This document shows, in pieces, positions 2,193 to 5,191 of a stretch of DNA of 33,987 nucleotides (its first letter is position 1; each line of letters starts with the position of its first letter). The position numbers and the translations under genes were made by a program. Location of the stretch: the NCBI GenBank assembly GCA_030065755.1, contig JASJDA010000098.1, positions 1 to 33,987 of the forward strand, written 5' to 3'. A model generated the notes under the pieces. The model searched no databases, was not told where the DNA came from, and was given only the letters and a program-made list of their open reading frames with translations. The stretch comes from Prochloraceae cyanobacterium. Its GTDB lineage: Bacteria > Cyanobacteriota > Cyanobacteriia > Cyanobacteriales > JASJDA01.

Positions 2193-3263
2193 TCAAGTTT
2201 CCAAGCTCTCGCACACTACTCGAAAACCGTAGATTTCCACTCGATCTTCTCGTTCGTCGCGAGTGCGATAAGCGCTGCGACATCTTACAGGAGTGCTTTG
2301 CCAAGAACCTCCCCGTAACACAGAGCGAGTGTCATCTAGACCTCTATCTGTTTCTGGCGTCCGCGCTTTACCATTTTTAGGCGCTCCATTATAGTCGCGG
2401 TACCACATATCAGCGCACCATTCCCAGACATTTCCGTGCATGTCGTACAAGCCAAAGGCATTAGGAGGAAAACTACCTACTGGGGTAGTTGTTTCTCGAT
2501 ATTCTCCTTCTGGTTCTCGATCGTAAACTCGATCGCCTCTGTAATTGGCTAATTCACTGGTAATTGTCTCGCCAAAATAAAAGGGAGTTATGGTTCCAGC
2601 GCGACAAGCATATTCCCATTCTGCTTCGCTAGGAAGTCTATATTTACTTCTGGTGCGCTCGGATAATCGACGGCAAAATTCAACAGCATCTCCCCAAGCA
2701 ATTTGTTCTACTGGAAGATTATCCCCTTGAAAACGAGATGGATTTAAATTGAGATCTCGTATAACTGTTGGTAGACTGGCAACTGCTCTCCATTGCGCCT
2801 GAGTTACTGGATACCTGCTGATAAAGAAAGGGGGTACTTCTACTCGATGTTGGGGACGTTCGCGATCGATACTTCCTTCTTCTCCTACAGGAGCACCCAT
2901 TCTATAAGTACCTCCAGGAATAGCTACCATTTCTAAATTGACATCGTAGCCCAATTCTTCGGTAAAATAATCACTCTCGAATCGCTGTTTTTCTATTATT
3001 TTGCCGCTTCTATCTACAATAACTGTCTCAAATTCTTCAAATCTTTCTAAAGTAACTCCCCGTGGTGGGATGGGTAGTTCGGACTCTAATGTCTGTTTTG
3101 TCCGTTGCTTGTCAAATTCGTTTATCGCTCGATCTTGTCGTGCAACAGCTAATTTTTGCCCCAAAAAAGCCAAACCCAATCCACTACCAGCGCTTAAAGC
3201 TAGCTTGAGTAATTTTCTGCGAGCAAATATTGCTTTTTTTTTCTTATAGTTTAGATAATTCAT
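2193..3263 (-). CDS. Exported FGE-sulfatase (SUMF1) domain protein with Tat-type signal
   Basis: A 356-residue protein. Residues 1-43 look like a twin-arginine signal: basic start, RRKLLK at 15-20, then a hydrophobic, glycine-rich stretch to about 36 and VARQ. From about residue 115 it is an FGE-sulfatase domain (VAIPGGTYRMGAP, PVTQAQWRAV, RLPSEAEWEYACRAGT, FGLYDMHGNVWEWC, LRGGSWQSTPVRCRSAYR, YGFRVV). In true formylglycine-generating enzymes the RGGS region holds two copper-binding cysteines; only the second is present here and the first position is serine. Sulfatase activation is therefore doubtful, and a binding or structural role is likely. A GAGG at 3269-3272, five bases before the ATG, supports the start. 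Its upstream flank is transposon-derived. The C-terminal domain is close to that of the Hsp70 fusion at 31233-33560. Confidence 0.85.
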   Translation of the reverse strand: MNYLNYKKKKAIFARRKLLKLALSAGSGLGLAFLGQKLAVARQDRAINEFDKQRTKQTLESELPIPPRGVTLERFEEFETVIVDRSGKIIEKQRFESDYFTEELGYDVNLEMVAIPGGTYRMGAPVGEEGSIDRERPQHRVEVPPFFISRYPVTQAQWRAVASLPTVIRDLNLNPSRFQGDNLPVEQIAWGDAVEFCRRLSERTRSKYRLPSEAEWEYACRAGTITPFYFGETITSELANYRGDRVYDREPEGEYRETTTPVGSFPPNAFGLYDMHGNVWEWCADMWYRDYNGAPKNGKARTPETDRGLDDTRSVLRGGSWQSTPVRCRSAYRTRDEREDRVEIYGFRVVCESLET

Positions 3264-3455
3264 GTAAACCTCACGGGAGTTTGGAAACCGCCATTTTCAA
3301 ATGGCGTGAAGTACAAAAAGTTCATTTTTATTAGGGAAGTCTTCATAAACCGATAACCTATCCCTCTAGCCGACAACTTAAAGATAAAGACTTCCCTAAT
3401 AAAAATAAAAACATTTCTCGGAAAAACGACACGAGCGGTTTTAACCGCAGTGAAA
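3264..3455 (-). mobile_element. Right-hand flank of IscB element (3' of iscB, 5' of FGE gene)
   Basis: This stretch follows the iscB stop and ends at the FGE start codon. It holds several foldable pieces: GCGGTT-TT-AACCGC (3435-3448), the long 20-bp inverted repeat at 3324-3406, and GCCATTT/AAATGGC near 3290-3306. Such hairpins are expected at the right end of IS200/IS605-type elements. I cannot fix the exact boundary; it may reach to within a few bases of the FGE gene's Shine-Dalgarno. Confidence 0.5.
3324..3406. repeat. Perfect 20-bp inverted repeat with 43-base spacer
   Basis: Bases 3324-3343 and 3387-3406 are perfect reverse complements (20 bp, core AGGGAAGTCTT), separated by 43 bases. 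The arms are A+T-rich outside and G+C-richer inside. It could be a right-end transposon structure, a small MITE nested in the element, or a strong terminator for iscB. A 72-codon open frame that runs across it has no other support. Confidence 0.8.
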
Positions 3456-4757
3456 TTAAAATCCATAAACATAACCATCTTTTCGGTGGATAGAAATGCA
3501 GTACTTATAGCTAATTCCTTGTACTGTTTCTTTTAGAGTTTTGATATTAAAAGAACCACTGCTTCTAACAGCAACCTTACCCAAATAAGAACCAACTTTT
3601 TTTCCTTTACTAACAACAGCTTTAACAATATCTCCAGTTTGAAAACCTTTAACTTGTTTAATATAAGCTGATTTTCTTACCGGCTTTCCTGTCTTGTTTA
3701 GTCTGGGAAAACCATGTTTATTGACATGAATAACTTGTCGTTGACCATGTCCAGCGCATTTAATTAGTAATGGTCGAGCGGTCAGTATCTCTAAATTAGG
3801 AGTATTGCCAACACAAGCAGCATCCAAATAATGACTTTTTTCTAGTTGTTGTTGAGTACGATTAAACTTAGTTTGTCCTCCCGTACCAGTTGTTACAGGC
3901 AAGCCAGTTTCTTTGAGTGAGTTAAACAGTTTCCACCGAGTAGAATTAACTGCTGTTGCATCTTTAAGAGGTGCTTTAGCTTGAGATAATATTCGATGAA
4001 GCAAAGATGGTTTTTCAGCTAAAAAATCTTTGATATCTCGATTAGATTTAGCTTGATTACAGGGGACACAGGCCAGAGTTAAGTTAGATATTCGATTGCT
4101 TCCACCTTTGGATTTTGGTACTATATGCTCTACTTCTAAAGGAGTATTAGAAACATTACAATAAACACAAGTACGATTCCATTTTTCTAAGAGATATTCT
4201 CTTACCTCGTATTGATAAAGGGTTCCCTGTTGATACTCTTTTCCTGATATTTCTGGTTGTTGTAATTTGTGGCAATCAAATTTGACTAATTCTGTTGCTA
4301 TTGAACTAATCGGACAGAATTTAATTAATCTGTTAACCCAAGTCATTGTGGTTAAAACTCGATGTTCTAAGCTGGGGGCTAACCATGCTTTTTCTCTAGT
4401 TCTATTCAGAAATCTAGGCTGTCTATATCTAGTTTTTCTATTTCTACGTCCACGTCGTATAGCTCGACGAGATTCTAGATCGTCTTTTATCTGTTGTCCT
4501 CGATGTGTTAGTTCTGCTGCCCAAACTAGCTTATTTTCTTGAACTATTGCCATACCAGTAACTTGAGAGCCTGGGTCTAATTTAAGTTGGCATTGTTTTA
4601 CCTCTTGTTTCTTGACTACCTTTTTAAGAATAATGGTGAATGGATATTGTCTAAATACCGCAGCTTTATCAGCTTTTAATAGCTTTTTAGCTATTGTTGG
4701 GGAGCATGGCTCTAATGGGAGTTTTTTGGTATCTAGTACAAATACTTTATTAGACAT
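3456..4757 (-). CDS. iscB: IscB RNA-guided HNH/RuvC endonuclease
   Basis: IscB proteins are transposon-encoded ancestors of Cas9 that cut DNA guided by an omega-RNA. The 433-residue order matches: an N-terminal PLMP-type domain (1-50, KKLPLEPCSP), RuvC-I LDPGSQVTGMAIV with D61, an arginine-rich bridge helix (about 97-121), RuvC-II ATELVKFD with E156, an HNH insert (about 195-242) with CVYC, EH211 and paired CxxC (CVPC 230-233), RuvC-III KSHYLDAACVG with H309 and D312, then a basic C-terminal region. All catalytic positions I can check are present, so the nuclease looks intact. No tnpA transposase is nearby, so the element is an orphan mobilised in trans or immobile. A noncoding, structured stretch lies directly upstream, where iscB loci encode their guide RNA. 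Confidence 0.92.
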   Translation of the reverse strand: MSNKVFVLDTKKLPLEPCSPTIAKKLLKADKAAVFRQYPFTIILKKVVKKQEVKQCQLKLDPGSQVTGMAIVQENKLVWAAELTHRGQQIKDDLESRRAIRRGRRNRKTRYRQPRFLNRTREKAWLAPSLEHRVLTTMTWVNRLIKFCPISSIATELVKFDCHKLQQPEISGKEYQQGTLYQYEVREYLLEKWNRTCVYCNVSNTPLEVEHIVPKSKGGSNRISNLTLACVPCNQAKSNRDIKDFLAEKPSLLHRILSQAKAPLKDATAVNSTRWKLFNSLKETGLPVTTGTGGQTKFNRTQQQLEKSHYLDAACVGNTPNLEILTARPLLIKCAGHGQRQVIHVNKHGFPRLNKTGKPVRKSAYIKQVKGFQTGDIVKAVVSKGKKVGSYLGKVAVRSSGSFNIKTLKETVQGISYKYCISIHRKDGYVYGF

Positions 4758-5004
4758 TTTTGCGTCTAAGTCTCCAAAAATTGGATAATGTTTGCCTCGC
4801 TAAAGTTATTGGTCGGTACTATCTGTAAAAGCACTTTCTTACCCCTCGTAGGAATGTTTAACTTTTTAGTTCTAGAGCTTGGAACTGGCACGCATTCCAA
4901 GGTAGGTCTTTAACTCTTGCCAATAACATAGTCAGTTAAGACTTAAGCTGGTCAGCTAACTAAAGTTTCGAGGCACGAAGCCCCGCTACTTCAGTGCGGG
5001 GTGC
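4758..5004 (-). ncRNA. Candidate omega-RNA / left end of the IscB element
   Basis: About 250 bases between the iscB start and the apparent left end carry no ORF but fold well. Read on the minus strand, it begins with a hairpin CCCGC/GCGGG (4982-4986 with 4996-5000), enclosed by GCAC/GTGC (4973-4976 with 5001-5004). A section with GGAATGCGTGCCAGTTCC (about 4882-4899) follows; it resembles, from memory, the conserved core of known omega-RNAs. In IscB systems the guide is the 5' end of the RNA, so here it would come from bases just above about 5005. No covariance model was run, so limits are approximate. Confidence 0.6.
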
Positions 5005-5053
5005 TGACAAAATAACTACTACTTCTACCCAGTATTTATTACTATTTTGTCAG
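5004..5053. repeat. 11-bp perfect inverted repeat at the edge of the IscB element
   Basis: CTGACAAAATA (5004-5014) and TATTTTGTCAG (5043-5053) are exact reverse complements around a 28-base spacer. The left arm starts at the foot of the element's left-end hairpin, so the dyad may be the target site, part of a previous element, or a terminator serving lipA transcription. Bases 5054-5191 show no gene. Confidence 0.6.
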
Positions 5054-5191
5054 TCTGTAAGATGTATAAATCAAATCAAAAAATTACTAACAAAATAGGA
5101 TAAAACCCCTGCCGATCGTCCTAAGGCTTTTTTTATTTTACCTGAGCGAGTGCCGCAGACTTAGATGCGAATCGCCGTTTAAAAAAGATGT

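What the first reader, a model, noticed from the sequence alone, without database searches (positions are those of the whole stretch)
3264..5053. Apparently intact orphan IscB with recognisable omega-RNA region
All RuvC and HNH residues checked are present (D61, E156, H211, H309, D312), and a roughly 250-base structured noncoding stretch lies directly 5' of the gene. No tnpA is near. The guide would be read from bases just above about 5005, giving a testable target.
Basis: partly seen in the sequence, partly recalled or inferred. Interest (0 to 1): 0.62.

Follow-up and report, generated by a model that had tools for sequence, protein, structure and literature searches.

The report
RNA-guided nuclease element at start codon
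A cyanobacterium carries an apparently intact mobile element with an RNA-guided DNA-cutting enzyme related to Cas9, inserted exactly in front of a gene's start codon; the element is of a known kind, but its family's habit of docking at start codons with a possible ribosome-binding site of its own is worth testing.

Summary
The minus strand holds an intact 433-aa IscB (3456-4757) preceded by a full HEARO/omega-RNA (5008-4785; 140.8 bits, gathering score 83), with no TnpA gene on this contig. It is not solitary: the genome has 7 full-length IscBs and 21 HEARO matches, 7 of them before a full-length IscB. The seven IscBs show purifying selection and keep the five catalytic residues named.

The element runs from 5008 to 3264. 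Predicted guide: 5024-5009. Predicted target-adjacent motif: ATGA (3263-3260), which is also the start codon of the next gene. Eight empty sites between two genomes of one related genus confirm this layout for the family; no empty allele of this very site was found.

Unexpected: of 61 elements with a readable right end (15 genomes), 36 abut the start codon of an ORF of at least 80 aa (ATGA 30/38 against 8% by chance), among them genes for cytochrome f, TatA and GpsA. Their last bases often hold a Shine-Dalgarno-like GAG(G).

Verdict: new member of a known kind (IscB/OMEGA), with a testable start-codon-docking habit. Transcription, cleavage and translation could not be tested.

The parts
3264..5008 (-). 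whole element, 1745 bases, left end GTCAGC at 5008, right end GAGGTTTAC at 3264
   Evidence: HEARO start; right end shared with the insertion on C449 and followed by ATGA in both, then divergent; layout confirmed for the family at eight empty sites
4785..5008 (-). HEARO RNA = omega-RNA scaffold
   Evidence: RF02033, 140.8 bits, whole model; 43 of 45 consensus pairs standard
5009..5024 (-). predicted 16-nt guide, host flank directly 5' of the RNA scaffold
   Evidence: position directly 5' of the scaffold; the corresponding flank continues into RTGA or its remnant at empty sites of sister elements; guide length of 16 recalled from IscB work
3456..4757 (-). IscB, 433 aa, RuvC and HNH
3435..3448 (-). 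short hairpin GCGGTTAAAACCGC behind the IscB stop codon
   Evidence: sequence
3321..3409 (-). nested palindromic insert (MITE-like), 26-nt arms, 92% complementary
   Evidence: same insert at the same place in the copies on C51 and C135
3289..3306 (-). hairpin CGCCATTTGAAAATGGCG near the right end
   Evidence: sequence
3269..3272 (-). GAGG, Shine-Dalgarno-like, five bases before the ATG
   Evidence: sequence; such motifs between 14 and 4 bases before the border in 31 of 36 start-codon elements
3260..3263 (-). ATGA: predicted target-adjacent motif and start codon of the downstream gene
   Evidence: RTGA in empty alleles
2193..3263 (-). downstream host gene, 356 aa, FGE-sulfatase domain

Best explanation
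This is an intact IscB/HEARO (OMEGA) mobile element without its own TnpA. Shown: IscB and omega-RNA scaffold are intact, the copy belongs to a multi-copy family, and it sits between host DNA in the place of the guide (5009 upward) and an ATGA that is the next gene's start codon. Inferred: a transcript that starts in host DNA runs through the flank and yields an omega-RNA with a flank-derived 5' guide; IscB with this RNA cuts the empty allele (guide followed by RTGA) and not the occupied one, where GTCA follows the guide, so that a lost element is restored from an occupied copy; excision and insertion are done by a Y1 TnpA supplied from elsewhere in the genome; the element's end gives the downstream gene a substitute Shine-Dalgarno sequence.
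For: guided_IscB 472.8 bits; full HEARO 140.8 bits; IscB and IsrB complexes are the ten best Foldseek matches of the model; dN/dS 0.12-0.24 in the 17 of 21 pairs that could be computed and catalytic residues in 7 of 7 copies; eight empty sites aligned through the junction, with GTGA in both alleles in six; same nested insert in three copies at different sites; the window guide with RTGA has no second site in the own genome within three mismatches.
Against: No transcript, cleavage or transposition was tested. No empty allele of this very site was found. No TnpA match in any of 101 HEARO regions with ten own-genome TnpA queries, so the mobiliser is unknown. No promoter-like site on the minus strand upstream of the RNA. 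The structure model is of moderate confidence (mean pLDDT 72.1) and its TM-scores to IscB are about 0.5. At two own-genome sites (C296, C97) the aligned allele of a diverged relative has no RTGA.
Confidence: 0.85

Rival explanations
1. The start-codon position is only what selection left: RTGA happens to open many genes, insertions inside genes are lost, and the GAG(G) at the element's end serves recognition by the transposase, with no role in translation.
For: 25 of 61 elements are not at such a start, and 14 of these 25 carry the same kind of GAG motif; GTGA insertions are at gene starts in only 6 of 22.
Against: The motif is commoner in start-codon elements (31 of 36; p 0.016, with related elements counted apart); at tatA the alleles of two relatives have a Shine-Dalgarno-like sequence that the insertion moved away from the ATG.
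Confidence: 0.45
2. A domesticated IscB that regulates the downstream gene through its 5' guide, without cutting.
For: It sits in front of a gene, in sense orientation, without TnpA.
Against: RuvC and HNH residues are kept in 7 of 7 copies; the family is multi-copy with unrelated downstream genes; the three copies with the same nested insert point to movement.
Confidence: 0.05
3. A decaying remnant of an element, transcribed or not, with no present function.
For: No TnpA nearby; truncated and ORF-less sister copies exist.
Against: Open frame, dN/dS 0.12-0.24, catalytic residues and RNA fold kept.
Confidence: 0.08
4. HEARO here acts as a cis-regulatory leader RNA of the downstream gene.
For: Structured RNA in front of start codons, in sense orientation.
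Against: Downstream genes are unrelated to each other, and sites are empty in sister genomes.
Confidence: 0.04

Closest known systems
IscB / OMEGA systems with solved structures (OgeuIscB 7xht, 7utn, 8csz; HfmIscB 9k2z; TbaIscB 9k30)
   Same: RuvC and HNH with the same catalytic residues, HEARO-type omega-RNA directly 5' of the gene, fold match
   Different: Shorter (433 aa against 496 aa for OgeuIscB) and distant in sequence; predicted motif ATGA at a host start codon
HEARO RNA, Rfam RF02033
   Same: Whole-model match; exists with and without an IscB ORF
   Different: No difference found in the RNA itself; the insertion motif ATGA/GTGA is, as I recall, in the 2009 description, which I could not read
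iscB genes on cyanobacterial plasmids (Gloeothece, Halotia, Nostoc, Chroococcidiopsis)
   Same: Annotated as RNA-guided endonuclease IscB in most of the 12 rows listed, 56-61% identity over nearly the whole protein
   Different: Located on plasmids; the window lies on a contig of unknown replicon
IS200/IS605 elements with TnpA and TnpB
   Same: No target duplication, hairpins near the right end
   Different: No TnpA; guide at the 5' rather than the 3' end of the RNA (TnpB layout recalled)

Membership tests
IscB (OMEGA nuclease) | RRXRR/RuvC-I with bridge region, RuvC-II, HNH, RuvC-III in about 400-550 aa | tested here: met
   guided_IscB 472.8 bits against 175, Pfam RRXRR and HNH, residues, fold
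IscB (OMEGA nuclease) | omega-RNA directly 5' of the gene | tested here: met
   RF02033 5008-4785, 27 bases before the ATG at 4757
IscB (OMEGA nuclease) | guide taken from the flank 5' of the element, motif 3' of the target | tested here: inconclusive
   Layout supported by eight empty sites of sister elements; not seen at this site and not tested by activity
IscB (OMEGA nuclease) | RNA-guided double-strand cleavage | not testable with these tools
   needs expression and an assay
HEARO RNA (RF02033) | match at or above the gathering score of 83 | tested here: met
   140.8 bits
complete IS200/IS605-type element | TnpA (Y1) gene in the element | tested here: not met
   no Y1 match on this contig, none in 101 HEARO regions with ten TnpA queries
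IsrB | IscB-like protein without HNH | tested here: not met
   HNH present, 47.8 bits against 21.4
Cas9 | scores above the Cas9 model cut-offs | tested here: not met
   Cas9d 48.8 bits against 375, Csn1 19.2 against 100

The most novel reading that the evidence does not exclude
Cyanobacterial IscB/HEARO elements are start-codon-docking elements. They insert between a host gene's 5' untranslated region and its ATG(A), so that the host promoter transcribes the omega-RNA with the displaced 5' UTR (at some sites with the old Shine-Dalgarno) as guide, while the element's right end supplies a new Shine-Dalgarno and keeps even core genes translated; the ORF-less copies act as trans guides for the few IscBs and make loss of the element at core genes costly.
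Probability: 0.35. Interest if true: 0.68.

Novelty: new member of a known kind. Interest (0 to 1): 0.46.

Why it matters
The IscB itself is one more natural, short, apparently intact member with a readable guide, motif and border, useful for activity tests. The family-wide pattern matters more: if an RNA-guided element routinely places itself between the promoter and the start codon of photosynthesis and housekeeping genes and restores their translation, that would explain how it obtains the external promoter that a 5' guide requires, why a genome tolerates a score or more of copies, and how a guide taken from a host 5' UTR could lock it in place. Each step can be tested with reporters and a plasmid interference assay.

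Tried and rejected
Empty allele of the window site: not found. Joined flanks matched relatives only in the domain of paralogues of the downstream gene, and tblastn found no lipA near the 80 homologues of that gene that one search kept. The promoter scan gave no minus-strand site upstream of the RNA. The one genome-contig scan, with the downstream gene, brought paralogues and did not name the organism. IscB-bearing and ORF-less elements do not differ significantly in start-codon frequency (13/27 against 23/34, p 0.19).

First counts (37 of 61) were corrected (36 of 61) after three borders were moved (L250, L257, L258). Dropped before that count: 40 of 101 elements without a readable right end (contig ends, truncations, no motif found), among them truncated own-genome copies. 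One own insertion (L290, C279) counts as 'not gene start' because its upstream flank is cut by a contig end. The border picker looked for [AGT]TGA behind a right-end motif and 11 borders were set by hand, so motif frequencies in that set are partly circular; the independent support is. The chance rates come from loci brought, mostly but not only cyanobacterial, and the window. For the RNA pair count, 11 own-genome rows (truncated, weak or with nested inserts), RNAs outside 150-300 nt and identical RNAs were left out.

Own-genome empty sites, against relatives at roughly 66-86% identity: at C94 (tatA), C223 (pdxH), C66 and C449 a relative's aligned allele has no element and has ATGA at the junction, with gaps near it; at C296 and C97 it has no RTGA; at C289 the two flanks aligned to different places or poorly.

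Literature: three papers looked up by DOI (the 2009 HEARO paper, the 2021 OMEGA paper and a third on IscB transposons, DOIs recalled) were not held; what I say of them is recalled. Start-codon docking of IscB/HEARO did not show in the listings, which cover open-licence papers only and of which I saw listings; I saw passages of PMC9755519, PMC8400943 and PMC13180657.

Full report
What is there. The minus strand of the window holds an ORF of 433 codons at 3456-4757 that matches the NCBIfam model for RNA-guided endonuclease IscB with 472.8 bits against a cut-off of 175, while two Cas9 models stay far below theirs. Pfam finds RRXRR and HNH. A sequence search of solved structures lists IscB chains first. 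An AlphaFold model from 22 sequences (mean pLDDT 72.1, pTM 0.63) has IscB and IsrB complexes as its ten best Foldseek matches, with query TM-scores of 0.45-0.55. Directly 5' lies HEARO RNA RF02033, 5008-4785, whole model, 140.8 bits.

Not alone. The genome (8.46 Mb, 455 contigs) has seven full-length IscBs, the window's own and six at 86, 85, 80, 74, 61 and 60% identity, plus a 54-residue N-terminal match on C183, and 21 HEARO matches, 14 above the gathering score. Seven of the 21 precede a full-length IscB; some of the others end at contig ends. Pairwise dN/dS among the seven is 0.12-0.24 in the 17 of 21 pairs that could be computed. Of the 60 genomes (own genome included), 31 have a HEARO match and 25 one above the cut-off. 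I fetched 80 of the places listed there, chosen by hand; 40 of the 80 show no IscB match in the fetched stretch (up to 2.6 kb downstream, several cut by contig ends). RNAs without an IscB keep the fold about as well as those with one: of 45 consensus pairs derived from 47 IscB-linked RNAs, 95.5% of cells are standard in those and 94.4% in 43 ORF-less RNAs, against 29-43% when the partners are slid; the window copy keeps 43 of 45 (one joint alignment, so some leaning towards the structure is possible).

Borders. The window element shares its right end CTCCCGTGAGGTTTAC with the insertion on C449; both are followed by ATGA and then diverge. It therefore runs from 5008 to 3264. Two genomes of one genus in the same order allowed a direct test: of nine insertions queried, eight have an allele without the element in the other genome, and the flanks joined at these borders align to it through the junction without a target duplication; the ninth was not resolved. 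GTGA stands in both alleles in six of the eight; L223 has GTAA occupied and GTGA empty with a gap behind it, L220 has GTGA occupied and GTTC empty. The 16 bases before the junction, the predicted guide, agree 16/16 at three sites and 13-15/16 at five. In the own genome, four sites (tatA on C94, pdxH on C223, C66, C449) have element-free alleles with ATGA at the junction in diverged relatives, two (C296, C97) have aligned alleles without RTGA, and C289 was not resolved. So the guide is the host flank 5' of GTCA, the motif is RTGA, and an occupied site carries GTCA in its place. The window guide (5024-5009) with RTGA has no other site in the own genome: the two places within three mismatches are its own left junction, which reads GTCA, and one that reads AGGA, against four for the reversed control pattern. 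No empty allele of this very site was found.

Start codons. The ATGA after the window element opens a 356-aa FGE-sulfatase domain protein. This is a pattern. Of 101 elements, 61 from 15 genomes (own included) had a readable right end. Of these, 36 abut an ATG or GTG that opens an ORF of at least 80 aa with an in-frame stop in the rebuilt upstream flank: ATGA 30 of 38, GTGA 6 of 22, and one GTAA that is none. The same test on ATGA and GTGA tetramers of other loci (mostly cyanobacterial) and the window gives 403 of 5013 (8.0%) and 210 of 3494 (6.0%), and 55 of 623 and 31 of 544 in the DNA downstream of the elements. Elements are related to each other, so the nominal p of 1e-25 is too small. Nine of ten tested 70-residue N-termini match known families starting at profile positions 1-12: cytochrome f, Psb27, methionyl aminopeptidase, allophycocyanin alpha, GpsA, TatA, PdxH, UDP-sulfoquinovose synthase and PurT (only TatA exceeds its cut-off, as the pieces are short; the tenth matched nothing). 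Between 14 and 4 bases before the border, GGAG, GAGG, AGGA, AAGG or GAG occurs in 31 of 36 start-codon elements, in 14 of 25 others, and in 18% of random 11-mers of the elements. At tatA the flank moved away from the ATG holds AGGA, and the alleles of two relatives have AGGA or GGGAG shortly before the ATG.

Mobility. The window copy and those on C51 and C135 share one nested palindromic insert at the same place, so this element line most likely moved after acquiring it. Ten TnpA proteins of the genome found no match in any of the 101 HEARO regions; 16 Y1 matches lie on other contigs. Mobilisation in trans is inferred. Published work agrees that only few such genes sit next to TnpA (passage of PMC9755519), and a passage of PMC8400943 names HEARO RNAs among regulated non-coding RNAs of Limnospira indica that its authors set aside.

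How it most likely works. Shown: parts, layout, copies, selection. Inferred: transcription starts in host DNA, since the guide lies outside the element; the host gene's own promoter is the natural candidate when the element sits in its 5' untranslated region, though no promoter-like site was found here. IscB with the RNA cuts alleles without the element. The carried GAGG restores translation. The plainest alternative for the last point is that RTGA opens many genes, insertions inside genes are lost, and the end motif serves the transposase; the data do not exclude it.

Membership and novelty. The locus meets the tested defining features of IscB and of HEARO, fails that of a complete IS200/IS605 element (no TnpA), and is neither IsrB nor Cas9. 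It is a new member of a known kind. Close annotated relatives exist on cyanobacterial plasmids (56-61% identity in the 12 rows listed) and one on a Microcoleus phage (58%). The insertion motif ATGA/GTGA is, as I recall, already in the 2009 description of HEARO, which I could not read, and ORF-less omega-RNAs are, as I recall, in the 2021 OMEGA paper (not held). Start-codon docking with a carried ribosome-binding site was not found in the searches made, which cover open-licence papers only.

Noticed in passing
window 3321-3409; also HEARO loci on C51, C135, C66, C449, C346: A palindromic MITE-like insert (ATTTTTATTAGGGAAGTC...) lies inside several HEARO elements, in some copies within the RNA scaffold itself (C66, C449).
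   Followed up: partly
window 5035-5105: An imperfect 20-nt inverted repeat (80%) lies just upstream of the predicted guide; TATTTTGTCAG recurs at the left border itself. Origin unknown.
   Followed up: no
L291 (C289), L292 (C415), L293 (C363): HEARO 5' fragments that stop inside the RNA end directly at ATGA or GTGA, as if a surrogate right end had been used; on C289 the ATGA opens a 333-aa ORF, the other two open only 23 and 13 codons.
   Followed up: partly
L009 (C440) 1447-2637; similar matches on C409 (L010), C84 (L012), C334 (L013): ORFs of about 390-410 aa with an RRXRR domain in the parts scanned (L009, L010, L012); the 396-aa L009 protein shows no obvious HNH by eye, so it may be an IsrB. 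The whole ORFs were not scanned.
   Followed up: partly
L200 and L220 (G038): Two IscB elements carry a tandem duplication of their right end including the GTGA.
   Followed up: no
L220 and its element-free allele L307: The empty allele has GTTC where the occupied one has GTGA, with 15 of 16 guide bases kept: possibly a motif-escape mutation.
   Followed up: no
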